Shown here one piece after another: positions 24,001 through 59,005 of a DNA stretch of 64,000 bases (its first letter is position 1; each line of letters begins with the position of its first letter). The position numbers were made by a program, and so were the translations under genes. The stretch is from contig OZ038527.1 of the NCBI GenBank assembly GCA_964036665.1, positions 24,575,901 to 24,639,900 on the forward strand, given 5' to 3'. Source of the stretch: Gordius sp. MW1 (Eukaryota > Nematomorpha > Gordioida > Gordea > Gordiidae). Under the pieces are notes generated by a model. It made no database searches, had not been told where the DNA came from, and saw only the letters and a program-made list of their open reading frames with translations.

Positions 24001-27000
24001 AAAAATCGAATTTTGATATATAATTAAACGGAAAATTTAACCTAAATTTAGGGAAGGGAAAATGCCAGGGTTATTGAATATTCTCTTACACTTTCTATTA
24101 ATGGTTATAAAATTCATGAGCGTTATAAAATTATAATATTAATGAATTAAAATCCTCACTTTTGTCAATAATTATAAGCAAAATAAAATTAATTAATGGA
24201 AATAGTAAAATCTAATACAATCTCAATCCATGGCTCGATGCCAGCTCATTAATTTCATATATTTTAGCATATAACATACATAATCATTTGAAAATAAACT
24301 TCTATCGGAAAAAAAAAATTTAAAAATTAAATAGATAATTTCCCGTCTCAATCGATCTTACTAGAGTACTAAATAAATAAATAAAAGTTTAGTATTATAA
24401 ATATTTTGAGGACATCCCAATACTGCTCTTGAATTATATTTGCAAACAGTAATGCCCATTTTCTGTTTTATAAAAAAATATTCGCGATTATCATGGGAGA
24501 TAGCAAAAAAAAAAATTTTTTCCCCTGTTTTTAATAAAAAAATTTAAGACTTAGGGGCCAAAGGTTGTGAGAGGTTGTCGCGAGACAAAAAATTATAGAA
24601 TCGTGAAGTTCCAAGTATTTGAAAATTTTACTGCCTCGGCTTTAGAGAGAGGACTTTGTTAAGATTAGATGGGGGGGGGGCAATGTTTTAAATTTTGAAA
24701 GTTTTAACTGTTAAATTTTTTATGTCGCATCAAATTTTGAACTTATAACTAACTAACTAACTGATTGACCAAACTAATGGCAATTTAATTAAAGGTTCTA
24801 ATTTATAAACTTCATAAAAACCCTTTTAATGCGTAATTACATGGCGTAGCCAGGATTAGATTTAGAGGACAATAATGATTTAGGGAGGGGCAAAATGTTG
24901 ATTTTGCGACATTGTAGTTATAATTATATTAAACTTTGAAGAATTTTTGGATTTAGAGGTGTTTGGTCGACCTTTGCTTTTAGTCGACTAAACATAAACA
25001 GACCAAAATTTAAGGTCTACCAAACAAAACCCAGCCGTTTTTGTAACACTAAGAGGGGGGGGGGGGGGGGCAGCCACCCTTCCCTGACACCCCCTGGCTA
25101 CGCCCATGTGTAATTAAAATGTAGAAACTAGAAAAACTTTAAAGAAATAATATTAAAATTGTTCAAATTAAACTTTTATAAAATTTAAAAAATTTTACCT
25201 GTATGCTAGTGAGAGTGGTATATTGATAAGCTTTCACTATGAGATAATTCGCTTGTACATCAACTAGGGCTATAACCAAATATTTAAAACCGCGTTCTCG
25301 CAAAAGTGTCCAAAATTTCAATGGATTCTGTCGTCCGTTTTGTTGGTACTGTCGAACAACGTTAAATACTATCCCCAACAATAGATAATTCAAGAAGGAT
25401 TGCGCTGGCAAAAAAAAGTGAAAATCATCGTGTCATTTAGTGCAAAAACGGGCTAAAAACACAAAAAAAAATTAATAAATTATTACTAAAAATCCTTAAT
25501 AAATTTCCGAATTTTCTTGGAAAGTATTAGGGCAACGATTTAAAGCTTTATTTATTTTTATTTCTTACCCGCTTTTATTTGTTATATATTTCCTATTTTT
25601 ATACTTCGCCCTTATAATGTTTCTACATCAAATCGATCAAAACAAATATTAAAAAAAAATTAAATACTTACGGGTAGAATTTATCAAAAATTGGCAAAAT
25701 TTTAAAGTTTCTCCGCTTATAGTCCTCCATTTTCAACTAAAAATCACAATTTCTCATGGCTTAAAAAACATTTCCTACTAATTAATCTTATTTCCTTAAT
25801 AAATCCAATTTTAGATGAAATTTTAATAATTTCCCGTAAATTAAAGGAAGTGAATTTGAAATCATCAAAATATTAAAGTTTGGGGTTAGAATCCCGGAGT
25901 TTTTTTGACTCTTATGATTGTTCTTGTTACTATGATTGATAATAAGAATTTTTGGCCGTCCGCTGGCTGCTGACCAATGAAAAAAATGACCATTGGCCAA
26001 AATGTGAATCGAAATTATTTTTTTCGTTTTTTTTGACTATTATGATTGTTCCTGTTTCTACCATTGCTATTATGACTTTTTGGCCGTCCGCTGGCTGCTG
26101 ACCAATGTTATATAATAAACATAAATAAAAGTTGTTTACTTTTAATTGCTATGCAATTTAACTAGTTTTTGGGTTAGAATCCCGGAGTTTTTTTGACTCT
26201 TATGATTGTTCTTGTTACTATCATTGATAATAAGACTTTTTGGCCGTCCGTTGGCTGCTGACCAATGAAAAAAATGACCATTGCCCAAAATGTGAATCCG
26301 AGTTTATTTTTTCGTTTTTTTTTGACTATTGATTGTTCCTGTTACTACCATTGCTATTATGACTTTTTGGCCGTCCGCTGGCTCCTGACCGATGGAAAAA
26401 ATGACCATTGGCCAAAATGTGAATCGAAATTATTTTTTTCGTTTTTTTTTACTATTATGATTGTTCCTGTTCCTACCATTGCTATTATGACTTTTTGGCC
26501 GTCCGCTGGCTGCTGACCAATGGAATAAAAATGACCATTGGCCAAAATGTGATTCGAAAACTTTTTTTTCGTTTTTTTTGACTATTATGAATTTATATCC
26601 ACTTTTACCGTGTCCTGGCTGCTGACAAATGGAAAAAAATGACCATTGGCTAAAATGTGATTCGAAAATTTTTTTTCATTTTTTTTACTCTTATGAATTT
26701 ATATCCACTTTTACCGTGTGCTGGCTGCTGACCAATGGAAAAAAATGACCATTGGCCAAAGTAAGCATCAAAATTTTTTTTTCCGTTTTTTTGGCTATCA
26801 TTGACTTATAGAGTATCTGTTGGTACTGACCAATAGAGAAAAAGTGACCATTGACCAAATTTTTGATTTTTTTAATTAAAAATTGTTCAAATTCAACAAA
26901 AAATTTCTCCCAACAATTTTGCAAATTCTTAACATTGTGTTGTTTTATAATATAATGTTTGTTAGACCCATAATCACTACTAAAGGTCATAAAAACTAAT

Positions 27001-34248: not shown

Positions 34249-37200
34249 CTAATATTCATCGATATAGGGTATAATCTGTTTCGAACTTTTTAATTTGAAT
34301 CTTTTCCATCTACGTTGTATAACCAACACTGCTTTGAGTAGGGTTCCAGTTGTGTAAATAATTTTTTTAGGAACTATGACACCAAAAAACTCGTTAAATT
34401 TTTGTTCAAACAATTGGCAAGGACCTGCTAACCATGCTAAAGTAACTGGGTCTTCGTAAAATTTTGCTTCCGCGTTTTCTCCTTCCACAAAAGGCAGCAC
34501 GCTCTGTGTCAAATGGTACCAAGATGTTGCTTTAAAGACATCTACGCTAGATACAGTATGGCCGGAGTAAACGGGTAAGTTCATGTGCGAAATTATGGTA
34601 TGATTAGGAGCTTCCAGCAGCAAGGGACCCATCATACGAGTTAAGAAATCCGAAAGCATGCTTAATTCCATATATGGACTTCCATCGGTCAAATCATCCC
34701 ACAAGAGCAGATACAAATCAACATCCTCACCGCTGATAGGTCGATCTGCTGATTGCGTATCGTCGTCTTCATCATTGGCATACACAAAATATTCCGCCAT
34801 GATGGCTTGGTACAGCATACTAGCAACTAGGTTAAAGATCATGAATGAGGTGACATAAAAAGAAACGGCATCTGGGTTCATGTTGTGATGTTTGGACATG
34901 TAAGGGGTATCACTTATGCTCCGACCAGCTGCGGATTTAAGGACCGGTGGTATCAAATTAAGCCATTCATCCTCGTTACCGGGATCGTGAAGGCTCCTTT
35001 CGATTTCGTGGACTTTGGTCTTGGTAGTCAAAAGGATAAGGACGGACAAGCTGTGCCAAAGGGTTTTAAAATTGAAATGGTGCACGTTAAACACGGCAGT
35101 TTGAGATACATCGTCATGAAAGAAAAATGTCCCTATTGATGCGTATAGTAAGATAAGGACCATATGGACCGAGATCACCATCATGAGAGATGGCAATGCC
35201 GATACTATAACCTTAATCAACTTGTAAACTTTTGGGAACATTTCGAAAATTCTTGAAGCTTCTAATAACCTGAGTACCAAAAAGAGGTGATACATATAGG
35301 CATTTATGTTTTTACCAATTCCAGCTGAACTTAGGAGCATGGCTATTATGGCACCTAAGTTGAAGAGGTTAGTGAGCTGCAGAAAATAACAGGCTCTCTG
35401 ACCAAGAACCTTGATAATAAATTCCATGCCAAAGAATGTGAAGAATATTAAGTCCGCTGCTTTGTGTAGGCTCTCACCTTGCTCAGTCAATTCGTAAGAG
35501 TCGAAGGCCATAATAATGGCGTTAAGAATTATTATAATGTGACAATACGTCTGATACTCGCTCGATAAACTTATCTTGTAAAACACGCGTAGTATATCGT
35601 CTTTGGGCTTGCGAACCATTTGCAATAGGCTCACGTCAAACATCCGTTTTACCTTATTTATCCAGATTTGGGCTTTAGACGGATTGAGTATATCATCGAT
35701 ATTCTGTTTTCGTTCGACTTCCATCCCTTTGAATGTGTCAAATATGACACCTATAAAGAGTGAAAAAAGAAAGTAGGAACCACCGATAAGGAAGAGCATG
35801 TAAAAAATGGTAACAGCCAACCTTGGTTTGCCCTTAACTCCCATCCCAATTCCTTGCGATCTGATCCCTGCCATCACAATCCCCTCCATATCTTGGTAAA
35901 TAGTCAAAAATTTAAGGGCGTCCAAGGCATAGAGTATATTATCGAAATTTGCATAACGTCTCTTCCAGGCAAACCCCCGTTTTTCGCACATAGTTTGGTT
36001 TAAGTTAACTTCGCGTTCGTTTCTAATGCACTCGTAACCCATACCTTTGAGCAATGAAACGCCGATCGAAGCGAATATCAGCCATATTACGAACGATAGC
36101 AAGAAGCTATTACACAAGGCTGTCATGGTTTTGAGTATAGTTTTGTATGTGACAACGACAGCATCGATCTGTGCGATGAGTAGGAAGAGACGACAAAAGA
36201 TGAAAACTCGCCTAAGCTTTTGCATGTAATAAACTAGCGTCAAATTTATATATGTTATCGAGATGAGAGTGCCTAGCAAGACTTTCCACATGAACATGGG
36301 GCTCAAAACGGTATTACGAGTACCTTTAATAGCCACACTAATAATTATTTCTCCTATAATGTGTATCATAACGAAAAGCTCCGAAACATTTAAAATCCAG
36401 CTTCTATATGGGGAATTTAAGGCGAATACATCATCAAATAATAATATAGTTGCAGAAGTCGAAATTGTCATTACTTCTATAACTGTCATATACCATTTTT
36501 CTAACATATTTATAACTCGCGACCTAACGCCATTGACTTCGTTGTCATCAGGGTTTAGACAAAAACAAATACCATCCACCTGGGCTAGAGCTGCCGTCAT
36601 AATACTATGCATAACATTTGTGAGAGCTTTTAAATAATTCATTATGGTGGAAGTATCGAATAAAGGCTGGTTCACTTTGATGGTCGTAGCCATGGAATGG
36701 AAGAGAATGCCTTCAAACAAAAAAATCATGACGGAAAAAATGGGTACACCTCCCAAAAAATAAATCATGCAAAACGAGGCAGGCGATTCGGTTTCGGCTA
36801 GGCATTGTTGAATGGGTTTGTATATTTGTCCACACAATATCATGATATTGATAACAAGGGCTCGGGATATTCCGTAAAAGGGATTTTCGAGTAGGTCGAC
36901 GGATCGATAATAGTGCCGGAACAGGTGATAACCTATTACAGACCACACATATATTATAATGAACAAGATGACGAAGTATACAAGAATGGTAATCAAGAAG
37001 TCACCCAATTTCATAGACATTTTTCGAATATAGGGTAATCTTAGGGCTCTCATTATCTTCAGAGATCTGAGGACAGCCATCAAGGTATGAAGTTCCACGT
37101 CCAAATGTGCGAAAGAAAAGTCCCTCAGCAAAAGAATGACTTCTAGAAAACCGGCCAAGTTCAGTAGAACTTCCCACACATCCAATAGACCTTCCAAACT

Positions 37201-39999
37201 TCCTTGATTAGCAGCGACTCTTGCGAATAATTCGATTGAAAAGATTGCGGTAAATAAGATGTCAGTATAGAGTTGTGTCATTTCCAGCCAAATGGGTTGT
37301 CCGAAATGATCGCTACATACTATAGCAACGTTGACCGCTATGCAAATATCTATGAAATTTTTGTAGTATTCGTTGGATGCAAGTCTTTTGCAAGTTGAAC
37401 TCAACCCAGATAGCGGCTGGGATGGAGGTCTTATATCTTGTTCAAGTTGATTCCAAAAATCATCATAAAGATCGAGATGAGGATCCATATTATCGAAATC
37501 AATATCGTTTTCAGCAACAGGAACCCATGCGCGAGTGAAAAAACAACTTTTTCTATCGCACTCAAACAAAGTTCCTCCAGGCTCAATGGGCTTAGATTTC
37601 GAGCGCCTAAGCTGAGTGGGATTTATAGGAATCTCTGCTTGATCAACGTTGCTATCTCTTTGATCGTTCGTTGTGTCGTTGTATCTCTTATCGAGGAAAG
37701 TTATAGTCTTGCCTAATCTTTTGCTCAAGTCACCCTTAGACCTTTTAGCTTTTTGCGAGGTACCCGTGTTGGCCCAATAGGATTTCCATATTTTTTCTTC
37801 TCCCTTACGCCTTAAACTTTCTTCTGTAAAACGGACAAACTTTAACTTTTTGCTACGAGTCTCAAAAACGAATATAAATTTGGGACTAAAGGTGTTTGAG
37901 CTTAACTTCACAACCTTAGCGTAAAGTCCAGTCCTTGCCTGTATGTCGGCCTCTATCTTAAGCTCCAAGTCATAGCTCGTGGTTATCACTACGTTTAATA
38001 GTGTACTATAGAGCACGAGACTTCCAAAAAAAATGATGGGACCGAAAAAGGTGACTACAGCTATGGCAGGTTGTACGTCAAGTAGTTTTTCGTAAACATC
38101 CTCAAAATCGTCTAATATGATGACGCGTAACACATTAAGCGCCGAGTAGAATATATTGTCGAACGTGAAGTAAAGCCTATCCCTTTCACGCTCTCTTAAA
38201 CACATATATTTGGGCGGACAGTCGGGAATGCTATGCCTACAAGGAACCGTTCGTCGCTCTAAGTTCAAGAAGTAATCTCGCCTCCCCGGGGCCAAGTGGG
38301 CTGGTAGCAAATCCATCTCCGAATTCAATCTGCAGTACTGAGAGAGGGTTCCTTTGAAGGATTTAAGGCCAATGTTAGCGTAAACAAAAATTAGACCCGC
38401 TATAGCACCCACCACAACCGTTATGTTTTGAAACGCTCTAACTAAAGTGAGTAGCACTATACGGAACCGAGAGTAGGAACATAACAGGTCCAAAATTCTA
38501 AAGAATCTTATATAAATGTACGAACTGCCCCCATAGTCATTTTCGTCATCCATTGAGCTATGATAATAGAGAGATCCCAAAGCTACAATCACGTAAGCTA
38601 AATCTAAGATATTTAGCGTCTCTCGGACGAACGTGTAGGGACCTAGAAATAGGGATGACAAAATTAATATAGATGGGATAAGGGGAATGTTATGATATTG
38701 GATGTCGATTTGTCCCTATTAAATTTTCTCCAAAAAAGTTTTCCCAAATGTTTTCTAGCTTACATCATCACGCGTCTTCTGTATAAGGATTCAAAGCAAT
38801 TCAGAATACAATATTGACGTGCCCAAAAATGGCTTATTTATTGTTAGGTCTACTAACTTCCTTCCCATTTAGACGAGTAAATTTAATTTGTTTGAGTTCT
38901 GGCTTAAGTAATTATTAAGTTACAATACGCCTAGTACCTAAGTCGACAAATTATAGGCAAAATTTGAGTTACCAAGCTATTATCCTAGAAAATTTAAAGG
39001 CTGAGCGATTAAGACGAGCAACTGAAATATAGCATCAAATTAATTAGTCCTCCGTGAATGATAGAGTATGATTACAAGATGGATGATTAAACCTTATTCC
39101 CTAAAACATCAAGACTACCTTCCAATTCTTATTACCTTAAGTTGAGTCCTACAATTTCTTGCATATAGCCATGGGATACAATTTTCTATTAAACATTGAC
39201 TTTTCTCAACTGTGTAACTTGAAATAGCACTATTAGCCTCGGTTAGTAAAAACATAGGTTTGTCATTTCTACTTACCTATAAAAAAACCTCTAGCGACAA
39301 CGACTGCACAACATTCTACCACGTATAGCCAAGTAGCTACAATTTCGATCAGCTGTCCAGTTTGAGCCGATGTATTAAAGGAGGCCACCAAATGCGCCAT
39401 AAGCACAAACAAGAGACCCGCTTCGTAATAGAGGGATGTGGTTAGATATATGCAACGACGTCTCAGCCAATTATTGGGTCGGAATATCCATAGCGCCCTA
39501 TGGGTTAAGTAACAGATGCGTAAAGTTGGCTGGGTTTTGTTTGGTCGACCATTGGTATTAGTCGATTGAACATAAACAGACCCTTGACCAAATAACCTTT
39601 CGTCTGTTCGTGCGTTGGTCTGTTTATGTTTAGTCGACTAAAACCAAGGGTCGACCAAACAAAACCCAGCCGTCTTTCCAACACTACAGATGCGTATGCA
39701 AGTTAATTTTTACAAAGCTTAAGCCATATATAAATTTCAAAATTTTTTATAACAACAAATAATGGTGTTTAACGTTTAAATTACATTATGTTTCGGTTGG
39801 AAGCTTATATAGCTATATAGTATCATTACCTATGAGCGTTGTAACGGTACACCCATGTTTTTCCCATTTTATCTCGAACGAGGCAAAAGGTAGGGTAGGA
39901 TATAGTTTTATCAATCTCTTCTAGCAGAACATCGTACATGGGAGTGTTATCGTCGGATTTTGTTGTCTCTGACGACTTTTCCCCTGCCGGGCTTTCCAT
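34249..39999 (-). CDS. Sodium-channel-family four-domain channel, divergent pore
   Basis: Exons on the minus strand: 39999-39830, 39497-39277, 38642-34249; 4785 nt, 1594 aa plus stop. An in-frame TAG lies three codons before the ATG. Four repeats of six membrane segments are visible. Sodium-channel-specific landmarks: YRYNAHRALWIFRPNNWLRR before S1, ARGFFIGPYTFVRETLNILD around S2-S3, FSLFIGVIFDTFKGMEVE after repeat III, a C-terminal EF-hand-like domain (residues about 1430-1500; ISGEDVDLYLLLWDDLTD, LSDFL, PLLLEAPNH, MNLPVYSGH) and an IQ-like motif (VLVIQRRWKRFKLK, about 1570). Pore residues by eye: repeat I Asp308 kept but its Trp is Phe; repeat II CGEW became CGQI (Gln736); repeat III FKGW became IYQD (Tyr1046 or Gln1047); repeat IV SAGW became KTKV (Thr1339). 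S4 segments have few arginines. The frame is fully intact, so it is not a pseudogene by ordinary criteria. Family membership is secure; conduction and ion selectivity are not. Confidence 0.88.
39523..39685. mobile_element. Family B MITE with perfect 11-bp duplication
   Basis: AAGTTGGCTGGGTTTTGTTT at the left, CCCAGCCGTCTTTCCAACAC at the right. The direct repeat ACAGATGCGTA is identical on both sides (39512-39522 and 39686-39696), so the insertion is recent or well preserved. It is in intron 1 of the channel gene, with its duplication only 14 nt from the minus-strand acceptor (AG at 39499-39498). Confidence 0.9.
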
Positions 40000-51200: not shown

Positions 51201-54200
51201 ACACACCATGCTCACGTCTGTCTCACATTATCATCTTACATTAAATTCTTTACTTTACCCATTTGGGCTAATCAAATTTAATAAAATACATTATTTAATA
51301 TAGCTTGATTCATTAACTGATCCTTAATCTAAATTTGAAGTTAGATTTTATTCTTGTTTATGATAGGAAATTGGTGTTTGGAGTAAAGATTATATTCCTA
51401 AAGGTACTAGATTTGGTCCCCTGCAGGGCGAAAATTTTGACAAAGATAGCGTGCCACGAGGAATAACTAGAAAATTTTTTTGGAGGGTAATACAATATAA
51501 ATTGCATTAAAAATCATCTAAATTATTTATTTAGTAAGCTGCCTCACAAATAACTCATTTCCTTAATAATATGTATTAAAAAACCAAATTTTAGATTATT
51601 TAAATGTAAGAATTTAATATAACAGATGTTGATATAATGTAATTATTACATTTATTGATTGGTATATTAGAATAAACTAATGTCCTTAAATTGTCAAAAA
51701 AAACTACTGTAAAAAAAATTTAATATCATTTATAGATGAACTTCGTGCTTAAAAATAAAGTGTATTTAAATAAATACAATATTTCATAAATTAATTTAAA
51801 TGAAAATAATATAATCAAGCGGGACTAAATGCATTAAAAACAGCAATAGGTTTTTGCACGAATACAACTTACTAAATTATAACTTTGAAATGTTCCTAAA
51901 AAAAAATTAAGTGATTAATATAGACGCACGTTAAATGACAGATTATACATACATTATTTGCGATGCAATTTCAAATTTAAAGCCTTTTTCTAATTTTTAA
52001 ATCCCCGCTTAATCATATTTTTTTACTTATTTTTTTAGGCTCTATATTTAATCTATTTTAAAAGTTTCAAATAACGATGGTCATATTTTAAGATGGCAGA
52101 CTTAGTACAACGATTGATAATGTGCTAGCAGATTTTGCCCGTAATTAAATCTTAGCGACATTTGGTATTATTGATAAAAAGCACAAAAACCCAATTTGAC
52201 ATTATTACATTAAATAATAAGACAGGTCTAGATAATAAATCTTGTAATCTGACAATTAATTATGATTGAGAAGATTACGTTGATCAATAATATGTATATC
52301 TAGTATATCACGAAGCGTCCAGATTTCACATCAACGTTGTTTAACGTGTTAAAAATGACGTTTTTAGCTTTTTTAGACGCTAAATTACCACTCTATTTTG
52401 AACTTATTTGTATTAATAGTTGTATAATTGCATAAAAAATTGATTAATATACAAGGCTATAAATTATGTTTTTTGTTTAACTTTTATATTTAAATTTATT
52501 CGTGGTAACCCTAACCACCTCCCCTCATCAAAATCCCATAGAGTCTGGGAACACGTATACATTAAAGTACATAGAACTTAAGCTTTGTTTACTAACATTT
52601 CACTCGCTTTTTCCACTTACTATATCCTCTCTTACTCCATTCCCTCTCTCCTTCTCTTCCACTCCGACCCCATATCAAGTTAGGCAAATGGGATAGGGCT
52701 GGAGCGGAGGAGCAGGAGATAGAGTAAGTGGACCGAGTGAGTGAAATGTTAGTAAACACCGCATAAATACTATGTAACCCGTTTTCCTAGACATAGTGAA
52801 AAAATTTAATGAGATGAAGAGGTTCAAGTAACATGTATACATTGAAATTTAAAGGTGAAAAAAAGAAACATTTTATAGCTTTGTAGATTAATTAATGTTT
52901 ACAGGATTTCATAATAATTGAAAAAATTAATTAAGAATCGACTGGGAATTTCGCCTTAAAACCTAAAAATACCATTTTTTACAAATTTAACCTCATTCAT
53001 CTAATATTCTGGTTGGAAAAAATCTAAAAACATTATTATTGTTTGGCGGAATCTCTGTCATAATTAGATTACAGGATAGTCACAACGTCTATATTTGTAG
53101 ACCTGGTTAATTAGACAAATCAAAATTTAATAACTATCATTGCTAAGTTTTTAACTTATCTTTTGGATTGTTTCAGGTTTATGATGCCGATACAAGAGAA
53201 CTAAGCCATTACATAGATGCTCACGACGAAGCAAAGAGTAATTGGATGCGTTTTGTAAATCCGGCCAAATCTTCTAAAGATCAAAATTTAATAGCTTGCC
53301 AGACCGGGGCTCATATATACTTTTACACCTTAACACCAATCTTTCCAGCTACCGAGTTGCTGGTATGGTATAGTCCCGATTTTGAGAATCGCCTCAAAAA
53401 ATGCTTGTCTACAGAATGTCGTTCCTTGCAGAATGGAATTACTAGTAGTCTTGTCGCTTCTACACTTTTCTCCGTTAATGGCATCGTAGATTCCAAGGGT
53501 CGTTTTAATCCGCCAACTTATCATTATTCTAGTGGTCAGCGCTCTACTCCTATAACAGTCCCCGAGGCCTGGACAAATAGCAGGGAAGAACTCAGGGCCA
53601 GTAAGTTGTTTAACTTTGGAGTGGACCAATTTGTAATTCTTATATTGTTGATACAGGTTGAAGTCATATATATTTCAATTACTCTCCAAGTGATTAGAGT
53701 TCTCGTTTCAAATAGTACCATCTATAATATAGAGTTACTAATCTTTTTCGAATGATATGATAAAATTTTTAAGTAAAAGTAAAGTTTAAGCCATTCATGA
53801 AACCGGCTAAGATAGCTTTTACATGTAACTAGTTTTTAGATTATCTAATTAATTATTGATTAACATTACTTTTAGGAAAGATACAATATAATTTTTAAAT
53901 AAAAGTAAAGTTTAAGCCATTCTTGAAACCACTTAAGATAACTTGTAAATGTTAATACTTGAGTTATACAGAATTTTGGATAGATTTTAAAACATCTACA
54001 AGTTTTTAATGTCTTAACATTTTTAATTACCTTATTAAACGAAGAGCGATGAATGGAAATCGATTTAATATATATCAGTACTACAATTTAGAACCATCGT
54101 GCTATGTTTTTACTCTTAATATGATTTGTCTTAATGATTTATTAAAATCCATACTTGAATATAAAAAGGAAAAATTTTTCTTTAATATTGACAATCAAAT

Positions 54201-57200
54201 TAAAATTTAATAAAAGCTAACTTATTCAAGGTGTCTTAGCCACTCACATAACAAGATACAGGTCCAAAACAAAAATTGTAAATTTCAAAAAAACTTTAAA
54301 ATAGAAAGCAATCGTAATCTCAGTTTTTGATATTCCAACATAAAATATTTAGTTCATTAGATGCAGGTAGATAAAATTAATAAAGGTAACAATTAAATGA
54401 GTAATCATATAGTTTGGGGATTTATTAAATAACTATATAATAACTACCTATTAATCGAGACATTTAGAAACGTTGCCTTAATAATATATTAGTTAATTAA
54501 AAGCGTTACAATTTTATATGTTAAAAAATACCGATAGTTATAAATCTTAATAGTTTAATTACATAGATCAACGTTCTTTGTAGCGATAATTTAATTGATT
54601 AGCCATTAGATAAAATGTAAAGAGCATCATTGAAAACAAAGCCAATATATCTAAGATTAAATTTTAAATATATCTAATTATTATGGACCCATATATATAT
54701 GACTCATAATTGTTACAAAATTAACCCTATTCCCCCATAAGTTGCTTATGTTGTCACTTTTCACATTTATAAATAACATTTTGTTAAGAGTAATAATAAT
54801 AATATTATGATTCTAATTTGATACTTTAAAGATAGGGCATACGGTTTTCATAAAACTAAATACAAAAATATTTATAGAAAAAAGTCGTCTTGTTTTTATT
54901 TTGATACTCTACAAACACATATATAACAAGTCTTTCTAAGTAAAATTATAAGGAAATGATATAGATACTCTAGGAATGCATTTGTTAAACAAACTAGGTA
55001 AAAATCACCAAAATGGCGAAAAATGCACTTTTATAAAATAATTATGATGAGCAAGCTATTAGCTCTAGTAATATTTTTACATTAATCTACTCTTTTACTT
55101 TGCTACATATAGGTCCCCCGTCAGCAGATGAAGTACGGAAAGAAAATATTACAACTAAGGCGACAAATGGGGAGATGATAAATCTTTCATTTGTTCGATA
55201 TGGAAGGGAAGCATTAAATTTTTATCCATACCAAAGATTCAATAATGATACTGCAGTATTAAGGGACGCAGAAATGTCTCAAAGCCAAGCCGCTTTTAAA
55301 TTGGCCACATCATTGATGTACCCCAAATATCACCAATATTTTTTAAACCAAATTTCTTCCAAAAATGATGCTGGGATTGACTACTCTCATCATAACGATG
55401 ATGAACAAGGTTTAAAAGATTGGAATAGTTTGATAGCAAACTACACTTACCCTAGCCCCGAAATGTCAAGCCCCAAAGATGTAAATGATAACCTCATTTC
55501 CCGTTCCTCCAAAGATTCACCAAATTGCAGCGGCGATGATGTCCCTGAAGAAACAGTCCTAAATTTAAAAGTTCAGATCAAGCCTGCACAGAACAAAGCT
55601 GAGAATTTGCAAAAAATTTACTTGAGTAGTTTGCCTCTGAAGAAAAAATACTTGGCAAGATCCAGTCCTTCGCTCTTGGCTACTAATGATGACCACGTCG
55701 TACATACATCATCTTTTAACAACAAAACAACCTTGTCCGCTTTATTATCTAACGATCCATTTCATGCTAAAACGGACTTACGTGCAGAGGTGAATGGAGA
55801 ATGTTGCGCTATTGATTATAGTCTTAGGGGCACCAAAAAACAAAGTCATCTCAGTTCTTTAAACTCGGATCAAAATCACCTAGATGCGCCTAAGCTCTCC
55901 ACGGCATCGAAATTTAAACAAATGTTATCTCCACTAACACCAGTATCACCTCTGTCACCATTACCCGTACATTCTGAGAATGTTAAAACGAGTGTTTCTA
56001 CCATTACAGATATGTTCAATAAAAATAAAAATATGCCGCCAGATCAATTAAGTGCTCCCAATTCAATGCTTAGACGACCAGGCGTCAATTCGGAACCTTA
56101 TCCTGGGCTTTGGTGTGCCTCAAACATGGATAAATCATTGAGCTCGGAAGCTGTCAATCTTTTAAAGCACAAAACAAGATCTGCTTTTGATCCATTATCT
56201 TATTATTCTTGGGTGAACGATCAAAACGTCATGTCTATGATGTACAAAAATTTTATGCCAAAGAAAAACGTTCAAGAAAATGTGCCTCAATCTGATAGCT
56301 TAGATCATAGTGTTAGAGGTGTGGATGATACATATTCGGGCATTTATTCGAATATATTTACAATGCCTACATCTCATTCTGAAAATGACGCTATTTTAAA
56401 AGAGAAATTACATGCATCTAAAAATTTGGGAAATTATTTAACGACTAATTACCCGACCATAGCAATTTTAAATGGTAGAGGCAGGGGACGCCCCGAAAAC
56501 AACCCATTACAACTTAACTTTAGAGAAACGTCATCAACTAATGCTCGTCACAAACTTGAGAATAAAAATGACGAAACAGATATTATAGAAAATGGAATAA
56601 AGGTTTTGAACGAAGTAACTTGCCAAGTTAAACAACAAAATTATGATGTCAATGGAGACGACGTGTCTAGAGCACATACCATACCTAGAGCTTTGAATCG
56701 ATCGATTGATGAGTATTTAGATACATCTTTTGGTTCTGTAAAAGAGACGTTGCCGTCTTCGACGAATTTGAACTATCCACAAACATCCGAACGAACAATG
56801 TATAAGTCGAATGGCTTTAAAACTGATTATACTTTAAAAGATACGAATACTTGTGGACAAGAATTTTTGGAATTGCAGCTTGATAGATCTACAACAACCA
56901 AGAAAGTTGTCTCACCTTACCCTCTCAAGAAAAAAGAAGGGAAAATGTCTTACGAATGCAACGTTTGCAACAAATCGTTCGGTCAATTGTCCAATTTAAA
57001 AGTCCATTTAAGAACGCATTCTGGCGAACGACCCTTTAAATGTGCAGAATGTGGAAAAGGTTTTACCCAACTGGCTCATTTACAAAAACACAACTTGGTG
57101 CACACTGGCGAAAAACCGCACGAATGTCAACTATGCAATAAACGTTTTTCAAGCACCAGCAATCTTAAAACACATCTCAGGTTACACAGCGGGCAAAAAC

Positions 57201-59005
57201 CTTATCAGTGCAACGCCTGTCCGGCTAAATTTACTCAGTTTGTTCATCTTAAGCTGCATCGTCGTTTACATACTAACGAAAGGCCTTACACTTGTTCAAC
57301 GTGCGGGAAGCGGTACATTAGTTCTAGTGGTCTCAAGACTCATTATAAGAGCGGCGGATTAACTTGTTCTTGTCACAGAGCTCTGAGTGATGAATCGAAT
57401 GGGAACGAAGCTGAGAGTCATTCGAACGTGGAGGGAAATGTACATGAGGATGAAACAAACGCGTATCAGATTGACGCTAAGCCCGACCAAATAATAAGTG
57501 AAGGAGATGGACCTCAGGAAAAATGCCTCTGTGTTAGTAGCAAATCTTCCTCACAACTTATTAAGAGTATTAATAATTATCAAAATGGATATGTGGAGTC
57601 GGCAATATTAAAGAAAGATATTTTGACTCCCATAACACAGTCTCTAAAACAACACCTAAATCGTAAAAGGCAAAAAATGCAATGGGTGAATTATTGTAAA
57701 GCCTCAAATTTGACACAAAATGGATTTGGACATGCAAAGAATTTTCAGATTTCGGGGCACAAAACACATAATGATGTGTTAAGAAATGGTTGTACAGAGA
57801 ATCAATCACCGCTTAGTAATGTTGATTCACCAAAAACAATCAATCGGGCTAACTTTAATAATAACAATTGTGATACTTTAAACCAAAACAAATTTAATTT
57901 TTATCCCTTTTCCCCCTTAACAGCTGTTGCAATATCTTCTGATATTGAAGCTATTATAAAGGAAAAGTTGTTTGCATCAGATATATCTGGTCAGGTAAAG
58001 AACAACAAATTATTAACATCCGAAGCTGAAGAAATGCATAAAGACTTGTTTCGAGACAATAATTTTAACTCGAATAACATAATGAGAATACTTGACGAAA
58101 ACACTAAATATAGGGAAGAAATGTTAAAGAGACAAACAAAATATAGAGGTCTACCATACGACTCGTTAACATATTCTTCTAAAAACTATACAACAACCCA
58201 GGAAACGAATTTTATCACACCAACATATGACGGTAAAAACATTTCCACATGCCCTATCGACTATTTAAATACAAAATATCCGAATTTTTCTAAAGGCTAT
58301 GAATTCAAATCATTTGATGCTTTAGCAGCTGGACAAAATATATCCAAAATGGCGTCAGTCTATAATTCGTTAAAATCTATATCGCAATCCACGGAACAAT
58401 CAATTTTGCAACAAACCCCGTTAAGAACCTTGCTAAGTGATGGTACATATGTCAAAACAGAATTTATTAGCCCTGGAAAAATTACAAGTTATTCAGATAC
58501 ATCCCCAATAAATTTAGTCACGAATGGCATTAAATTTGCTAAAAATAGTTATAATGCTAATTCAATGATTAGTAGCTCGAATGGATTAATTGCCTCACAC
58601 ACAAATTTGACCCCTAAGGGCAATTTTGTATCATATAATAAGTCTAAAATTGAGGCAGCAGACAAAGGTGGGAGAACGATATTAGAACCCGAGCCAACGC
58701 TCCTACAAAGCAAGAACGAGGAAACATTAAAAGAAACGCCTAGGAATGTAAAACTTTTAAATAATGATACTGGCGATTATATGCCACGTGGCGATGGAAC
58801 CTCGAATAATAGTGATAGGCGCATAGATTCATTAAATGGAACCTATTCCTCTAGCATTCGCAAACACGAACTTACAAACGATTCTTCAAACGCAAAACAT
58901 CAGGCACCGATGGCTCATGATAAACGTAATCAGCCAGACGACAAAGCCAATTCGAATAATTATAGCAACGAAAATAAGGCCATATTTAGACTCGCAGTAC
59001 ACTAA
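48246..59005 (+). CDS. PRDM1: Blimp-1 / PRDM1 transcriptional repressor, 4 coding exons
   Basis: A nuclear, sequence-specific repressor controlling cell fate in animals. Coding exons: 48246-48419, 51367-51486, 53177-53600, 55113-59005; 4611 nt, 1536 aa plus stop. PR/SET-like domain spans about residues 55-180: [65 protein letters not shown]. Five zinc fingers at about 852-995 match Blimp-1 almost residue for residue ([62 protein letters not shown]); the fifth is degenerate C2HC as in PRDM1. The [16 protein letters not shown] lead-in matches the vertebrate PLKKQNGKIKYECNVC. The long Asn/Ser-rich middle and the tail of some 540 aa are unrecognised and make it about twice the vertebrate length. 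All fingers are in one exon. The ATG at 48246 was chosen because an acceptor and an in-frame TAG lie just upstream; an extra N-terminal exon remains possible. Confidence 0.94.
48685..48857. mobile_element. Family A MITE, Blimp-1 intron 1
   Basis: CATAGGCGTAGCCAGCATTG to CCCTGGCTATGCCCATG; flanks TAAGAAT(C) and TAAGAAT(A) support an 8-bp target duplication (7 of 8). Confidence 0.85.
49979..50151. mobile_element. Family A MITE, Blimp-1 intron 1
   Basis: CATGGGCGTAGCCATCATTC to CCTGGCTACGCTCATG; flanks TGTTACA and TGTTATA are similar. Confidence 0.8.
50212..51198. mobile_element. hAT-like CGGGTT element with perfect 8-bp TSD and a nested MITE
   Basis: Termini TAGAGAACTGCA and TGCAGTTCTCTA are perfect inverted repeats. 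The flanking direct repeat ACACACAC is identical (50204-50211 and 51199-51206), although it is low-complexity. Interior blocks repeat TTCGGGTCGGGTCGGGTTCG with AAAATTTTAAAATGC linkers. A family A MITE is inserted at 50865-51011. No transposase seen. Confidence 0.8.
50865..51011. mobile_element. Family A MITE nested in the CGGGTT element
   Basis: CATGGGAGTAGCCAGGGCAA to CCCCCTGGCTACGCCCATG. Flanks AACACCCT and CACACCGC agree at 6 of 8. It lacks the left G-tract. Confidence 0.8.
52586..52758. mobile_element. Short palindromic MITE, Blimp-1 intron 2
   Basis: TGTTTACTAACATTTCACTC at the left and GAGTGAAATGTTAGTAAACA at the right are perfect inverted ends of a 173-bp element; CCACTTACT/AGTAAGTGG continue the pairing. 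The loop is pyrimidine-rich then purine-rich. Confidence 0.85.

What the first reader, a model, noticed from the sequence alone, without database searches (positions are those of the whole stretch)
34249..39999. Sodium-channel-family protein whose selectivity filter is rewritten in three of four repeats
The protein keeps family-specific landmarks of Nav channels (EF-hand-like and IQ regions, the ARGFF..YTFVRE..LNILD block), but the filter DEKA/DEEA is read here as D-Q-(Y or Q)-T, and the pore tryptophan is lost in all four repeats (WENLY to FEDVY, CGEW to CGQI, FKGW to IYQD, SAGW to KTKV). The frame is open over 1594 codons, so it is under constraint or very young. It may be a non-conducting channel paralogue, or a channel with a new permeability.
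Basis: partly seen in the sequence, partly recalled or inferred. Interest (0 to 1): 0.8.

Follow-up and report, generated by a model that had tools for sequence, protein, structure and literature searches.

The report
Hairworm's lone, dismantled sodium-channel gene
What looks like a hairworm genome holds one detectable sodium-channel-family gene, intact as a gene but without most of the parts that make a sodium channel work, which may show how an animal lineage gave up its classic nerve sodium channel.

Summary
A three-exon gene (34249-39999, minus strand, 1594 codons, no internal stop) encodes a four-repeat Nav-family protein: solved Nav channels score best (E 1e-52; best Cav 5e-25) and its tail matches Nav C-termini. 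In aligned register the DEKA ring reads D-Q-Y-T and all four pore tryptophans are gone. Also lost: IFM gate (ILN), regular S4 charges in DI, DIII and DIV, and the S3 aspartate outside DI. Kept: 9 of 11 loop cysteines, the EF-hand-like domain, an IQ-like motif.

'Paralogue' is not supported. Two recalled Drosophila Para queries find nothing closer in the 212-Mb assembly than this gene (23-24% identity), though three Cav genes and NALCN are there by eye. The mitochondrial contig has the inverted repeats typical of Nematomorpha, sister (recalled) to nematodes, which lack Nav genes. Neutral drift to 30% identity would bring about 74 stops; there are none. I favour a protein kept by selection as a voltage-insensitive pseudo-channel, non-conducting or weakly leaky. 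No orthologue, expression or current could be tested.

The parts
39830..39999 (-). exon 1 (ATG to splice inside a codon), N-terminus
   Evidence: gene model...RYNAHR/ALW aligns to Nav RFSATRALW
39498..39829 (-). intron 1, 332 nt, holds a 61-nt inverted repeat (39522-39677)
39277..39497 (-). exon 2, DI S1-S2, ends in ARGFFI-G
38643..39276 (-). intron 2, 634 nt
34249..38642 (-). exon 3, 4394 nt: rest of DI, DII, DIII, DIV and C-terminus
38452..38523 (-). DI S4, IRFFRILDLLCSYSRFR: two leading arginines, then D and C
   Evidence: alignment to Nav1.8; place
38083..38160 (-). DI pore loop; filter D308 kept, W to F310
37018..37092 (-). DII S4, LRSLKIMRALR: four spaced charges kept
36802..36876 (-). 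DII pore loop; CGEW reads CGQI (Q736)
   Evidence: 2.4 bits; Cav3, same register
36154..36228 (-). DIII S4, KLRRVFIFCRLFLL: charges reduced and out of the every-third pattern
35866..35946 (-). DIII pore loop; TFKGW reads TIYQD (Y1046)
35638..35697 (-). DIII-DIV linker; DIFMTEEQKKYYNAMKK reads DILNPSKAQIWINKVKR
   Evidence: alignment (also Nav1.3 row); place
35218..35295 (-). DIV S4, LVLRLLEASRIFEMF: two glutamates inside the sensor
34990..35070 (-). DIV pore loop; TTSAGW reads TTKTKV (T1339)
34642..34737 (-). EF-hand-like C-terminal domain of Nav type
   Evidence: Nav1.5 C-terminal domain 2kbi E 1.9e-8
34288..34329 (-). IQ-like motif VLVIQRRWKRFKLK
   Evidence: Pfam IQ E 0.12, 12.7 bits, below its 20.3-bit cut-off

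Best explanation
It is the only Nav-family gene I could find in what appears to be a hairworm (Nematomorpha). Shown: an intact gene, Nav-type architecture, lost filter, gate and most sensor residues, and no canonical Nav found in the assembly. Inferred: once the animal ran excitability on other channels (Cav, Cav3, NALCN), the gene was released from carrying sodium current but was kept as a folded membrane protein. It most likely works as a voltage-insensitive pseudo-channel: the pore is closed or at most weakly leaky, and the useful parts are the four-repeat shell with disulphide-braced outer loops and the cytoplasmic EF/IQ-like tail, which could bind calmodulin and partner proteins.
For: Frame intact over 1594 codons against about 74 stops expected by drift to 30% identity. 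Filter D-Q-Y-T, 0 of 4 tryptophans, IFM to ILN, S3 aspartate in 1 of 4 repeats, by reading the alignments. Loop cysteines kept 9 of 11 (4 of 4 DI, 3 of 3 DII, 2 of 2 DIII, 0 of 2 DIV) against 1 of 8 filter and tryptophan columns, Fisher two-sided p 0.0055 (columns chosen by hand). The tail still matches Nav C-termini. GC3 0.438 against 0.33-0.35 GC in its introns and GC3 0.31-0.37 in three other long frames of the genome. Para queries find this gene first and no canonical Nav.
Against: No orthologue, so no dN/dS. No expression data. The IQ motif is below Pfam's cut-off. Nothing computed here shows that the pore is shut. The single-sequence AlphaFold model was useless (pLDDT 36). Codon use correlates only 0.67 with three other frames. 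DII matches Cav3 better than Nav. Both DIV loop cysteines are gone.
Confidence: 0.5

Rival explanations
1. A conducting, non-selective, voltage-insensitive leak or partner-gated cation channel, like vertebrate NaX or NALCN.
For: [quoted passage not shown] D308 and E311 still offer carboxylates.
Against: More is changed than in NaX's filter: three of four ring residues, all four tryptophans, and lysines on both sides of the DIV position (K1338, K1340). NALCN is present as a separate gene, read by eye.
Confidence: 0.28
2. A neutrally evolving pseudogene that died recently after long accelerated evolution.
For: Key functional residues are gone; no expression evidence.
Against: No stop or frameshift, normal GT-AG introns, GC3 above intron GC. 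A recent death would have to follow a long phase in which the protein was kept.
Confidence: 0.12
3. A channel rebuilt for a new permeability, with DIV lysines and polar DII and DIII residues forming a new filter.
For: The pore segments of DI and DII are still hydrophobic; charged residues sit at the mouth.
Against: The tryptophans at all four filter sites are gone; I know of no channel with this ring (recalled, not searched).
Confidence: 0.06
4. A canonical Nav exists but is missing from, or escaped search in, this assembly, so this is an ordinary divergent paralogue. (Not exclusive of the readings above.)
For: Six-frame search without introns; the two queries were letters recalled from memory; only the best candidates are scored.
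Against: The same queries picked up single Cav exons at 24-49% identity, the best at E 9.5e-10, so a canonical Nav should ring; the assembly holds Cav, Cav3 and NALCN genes by eye.
Confidence: 0.1

Closest known systems
Nav1 (DEKA) and Nav2 (DEEA) four-domain sodium channels
   Same: Four repeats, N-terminal ALW and ARGF blocks, loop cysteines in DI-DIII, Nav-type C-terminal domain
   Different: Filter D-Q-Y-T, no pore tryptophan, ILN for IFM, sensors broken in DI, DIII and DIV, about 1464 codons in one exon
NaX / SCN7A (DENA, few S4 charges, closed S6 gate in the structure)
   Same: Nav-derived, depleted sensors, divergent III-IV linker, changed filter
   Different: NaX keeps D, E and A and exists beside nine Nav1 genes in vertebrates (PMC6259924, abstract passage); here three ring residues changed and no canonical Nav was found
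Aphid heterodimeric Nav (DENS)
   Same: Only identifiable Nav of its genome, atypical filter (start of abstract in listing, PMC4332693)
   Different: Split into two subunits; keeps D and E; here a single gene with deeper loss
NALCN
   Same: Four repeats, voltage-independent leak (family knowledge)
   Different: A separate NALCN gene is present at C3:12.48M by eye; the Nav-type tail is not a NALCN feature (recalled)

Membership tests
Nav sodium channel family (by descent) | Four Ion_trans repeats in one chain | tested here: met
   Pfam Ion_trans, 4 stretches
Nav sodium channel family (by descent) | Closest to Nav rather than Cav | tested here: met
   Nav 182 bits, best Cav 90 bits; DI, DIII and DIV match Nav DI, DIII and DIV best in the top-ranked chains (for EeNav and NavPaS chimeras the DIV fragment fits DII best); DII alone matches Cav3 better; no tree built
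Nav sodium channel family (by descent) | Nav-type EF-hand C-terminal domain | tested here: met
   2kbi, 4ovn, 4dck, 4jq0, E 2e-8 to 5e-8
Nav sodium channel family (by descent) | IQ motif | tested here: inconclusive
   E 0.12, below cut-off; VIQRRWKRFKLK near the C-terminus
functional Nav1/Nav2 channel | DEKA or DEEA filter | tested here: not met
   D-Q-Y-T
functional Nav1/Nav2 channel | IFM-type inactivation gate | tested here: not met
   ILN
functional Nav1/Nav2 channel | Arginine-rich S4 in all repeats | tested here: not met
   Regular pattern kept only in DII
functional Nav1/Nav2 channel | Voltage-gated Na+ current | not testable with these tools
   needs electrophysiology

The most novel reading that the evidence does not exclude
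Hairworms, sister to nematodes, lost sodium-channel function but kept the gene: a pseudo-channel whose shell and EF/IQ-like tail were kept by selection while filter, gate and sensors were dismantled. It would be an in-between stage of the Nav loss that is complete in nematodes.
Probability: 0.4. Interest if true: 0.8.

Novelty: new variant of a known kind. Interest (0 to 1): 0.6.

Why it matters
Nematodes lack Nav1 and Nav2 (PMC6259924, section 23), and how they came to is open. If their sister phylum holds one dismantled Nav gene and no canonical one, the loss becomes datable (before or after the two phyla split), and there is a protein with which to ask what a Nav scaffold is good for without its current. 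It would also be among the most altered Nav-family proteins with an intact gene that I know of (recalled, not surveyed).

Tried and rejected
Paralogue beside a working Nav: rejected for this assembly. Chance open frame: rejected. Alternative filter register: within four residues of the filter column there is no acidic residue in DII and no lysine in DIII, so a small shift cannot restore E or K. AlphaFold on DIV plus tail (single sequence): pLDDT 36, discarded, no fold search run. Pfam IQ_SCN5A_C over the genome: no match, but that search's controls rang nowhere and it also missed the window gene, so it is uninformative. Degenerate YYNAMK pattern: two hits, both in stop-ridden sequence, chance. 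tblastn of the window protein against the loci held then: nothing but itself below E 0.02. I thought of pterobranch hemichordates from one mitochondrial AGG codon; conserved methionines at ATA codons in COX1 (motifs recalled, my reading) spoke against that, and inverted repeats pointed to Nematomorpha. Not done: dN/dS, expression, 18S (search did not complete), sequences of other hairworms, and reading the weak Ion_trans rows at C2:17.36M, C2:24.79M and C1:5.99M.
Full report
WHAT IS THERE. The window is part of contig C1 (28 Mb) of a 212-Mb, 12-contig genome. On the minus strand a three-exon gene runs from 39999 to 34249: exons of 170, 221 and 4394 nt, GT-AG introns of 332 and 634 nt, 1594 codons, no internal stop. 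The joins fall where Nav homology continues: NAHR-ALWIF against Nav SATRALWLF, and ARGFFI-G-PYTFVRE against Nav ARGFCLNEFTYLRD. One exon carries about 1464 codons, whereas the Cav genes of the same genome appear, by eye, to be cut into many short exons. Two introns at the 5' end and none in the rest is the pattern expected if a partial reverse transcript replaced the 3' part of the gene (inference, not tested).

FAMILY. Pfam finds Ion_trans four times. Of 80 PDB sequences matched, 60 are shown; the best 31 of these are sodium channels, E 9.6e-53 to 4.4e-26, and the best calcium channel follows at 5.1e-25. In the top-ranked chains DI, DIII and DIV match the corresponding Nav repeat best, though in EeNav and the NavPaS chimeras the DIV fragment fits DII best. 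DII is the exception: it matches Cav3 best (4e-15), and of Nav chains only NavPaS (4e-9), in its fourth repeat. The tail matches Nav1.5 C-terminal domains (E 2e-8). No tree was built.

WHAT IS LOST AND KEPT. Reading HMMER's alignments (positions): TQDSWE to ILDDFE, CGEW to CGQI, TFKGW to TIYQD, TTSAGW to TTKTKV. The ring is D308, Q736, Y1046, T1339; 1 of 4 ring residues and 0 of 4 tryptophans remain. The DII register rests on a 2.4-bit Nav alignment and a Cav3 alignment that gives the same register. The gate DIFMTEEQ reads DILNPSKA. S4 is regular only in DII; DI has a D and DIV two E inside it. The S3 aspartate is kept in DI (LNILD) and replaced in DII, DIII and DIV, by my reading; the DII alignment has a gap there. 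Outer-loop cysteines of the printed Nav rows are kept in 9 of 11 places: DI 234, 265, 272, 278; DII 734, 744, 755; DIII 1002, 1016; both DIV ones are missing. Extra DII turret cysteines of some Nav channels (recalled; not in the Nav1.8 row used) are absent here and were not counted. Against 1 of 8 filter and tryptophan columns this gives Fisher two-sided p 0.0055; the columns were picked by hand, so take it as descriptive. A hydropathy scan gives 26 hydrophobic stretches, roughly what 24 membrane segments plus some pore helices would give.

IS IT CONSTRAINED? Random mutation of this coding sequence until 30% identity gave a mean of 74 stops, fewest 50, in 40 runs; at 95% identity the mean was already 5.6 and the fewest 2. 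The gene has none, though its DIII and DIV are only 24% and 23% identical to recalled Para. So for most of its divergence it was held as a protein. This does not exclude a very recent death. GC3 is 0.438, above the GC of its introns (0.352, 0.326) and above GC3 of three other long frames (0.307, 0.372, 0.315). Its codon use correlates 0.67 with those frames and 0.57 with the expectation from intron composition, whereas the frames correlate 0.91 with that expectation: it is the odd one out in codon use, which I cannot explain.

IS THERE A WORKING NAV? Ion_trans over the genome gave 50 matches from 86 scored candidates; four rows are this gene. By eye, others are Cav (C4:11.17M and C5:20.16M), Cav3 (C1:23.51M), NALCN (C3:12.48M), Kv, CNG, EAG/ERG-like, IP3-receptor and CatSper-like genes; three weak places were not read. 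Recalled Para DIV plus tail: 17 matches of 20 candidates, best the window gene (E 6.7e-9); recalled Para DIII: 20 of 23, best the window gene (E 8.5e-13). Single Cav exons rang at 24-49% identity, best E 9.5e-10, so a canonical Nav should have rung strongly. The window protein itself finds only itself at E 0.001.

WHOSE GENOME? Contig C12 (14.8 kb) is mitochondrial: COX1 E 4e-121, with ND1 and COX2 by eye. It carries long inverted repeats, up to 108 nt per arm: 8 pairs in 4.3 kb and 16 in 6.1 kb, 20 of the 24 perfect. At least three pairs (I1, I4, I7) lie inside the ND1 frame; I did not place all of them. Long perfect inverted repeats inside mitochondrial genes are described for Nematomorpha, at an 'exceptional scale' there, though not wholly unique (PMC6649704, abstract and passages). 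I conclude a hairworm, inferred from this one marker; the species is not determined. Nematodes lack Nav1 and Nav2 (PMC6259924, section 23 read; passages). That hairworms are their sister phylum is recalled.

LITERATURE. A search for 'Nematomorpha' with 'sodium channel' found 2 papers, each with a single mention of each term, on barcoding and on insect sampling by title (listing only); the 15 and 12 rows listed show nothing on hairworm channels. The held library lacks most subscription papers, so this shows only that I found no report there. NaX is the closest precedent for mechanism (PMC8931054, passages).

VERDICT. Mechanism is inferred; the leak-channel rival is alive.

Noticed in passing
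G000:C12 (L037, L039): Mitochondrial contig with long inverted repeats; the one COX1 AGG codon sits at the usually invariant lysine of HKDIG (motif recalled), which may hint at AGG read as Lys.
   Followed up: partly
G000:C8:2829490, C5:673008, C8:432389, C1:25.29M, C3:93245, C4:0.36-1.49M: Many nuclear copies of mitochondrial COX1, one scoring nearly as well as the mitochondrial one; four C4 copies share one score.
   Followed up: no
L023 (G000:C2:21.27M) and L040 (G000:C7:20.35M): CatSper-like single-repeat channels; L023 matches CatSper4 at E 2e-36, though T-type Cav chains score higher; L040 by eye only. Notable if hairworm sperm lack flagella (recalled).
   Followed up: partly
window 39522-39677: 61-nt inverted repeat, 90% complementary, inside intron 1, like a small mobile element; similar words seen by eye in C4 loci.
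   Followed up: partly
window 26188-26798: 127/106-nt tandem repeat; a similar pseudo-translation (HFGQWSFFSIGQQP) appears in C3 and C1 loci: a dispersed minisatellite.
   Followed up: no
window 53147-59005, +: PR/SET-domain frame followed by a 1322-aa C2H2 zinc-finger frame, PRDM1/Blimp-1-like by eye.
   Followed up: partly
window 34249-39999: Introns only at the 5' end of the gene, and codon use unlike three other long frames; intron loss by a partial reverse transcript would fit the first.
   Followed up: no
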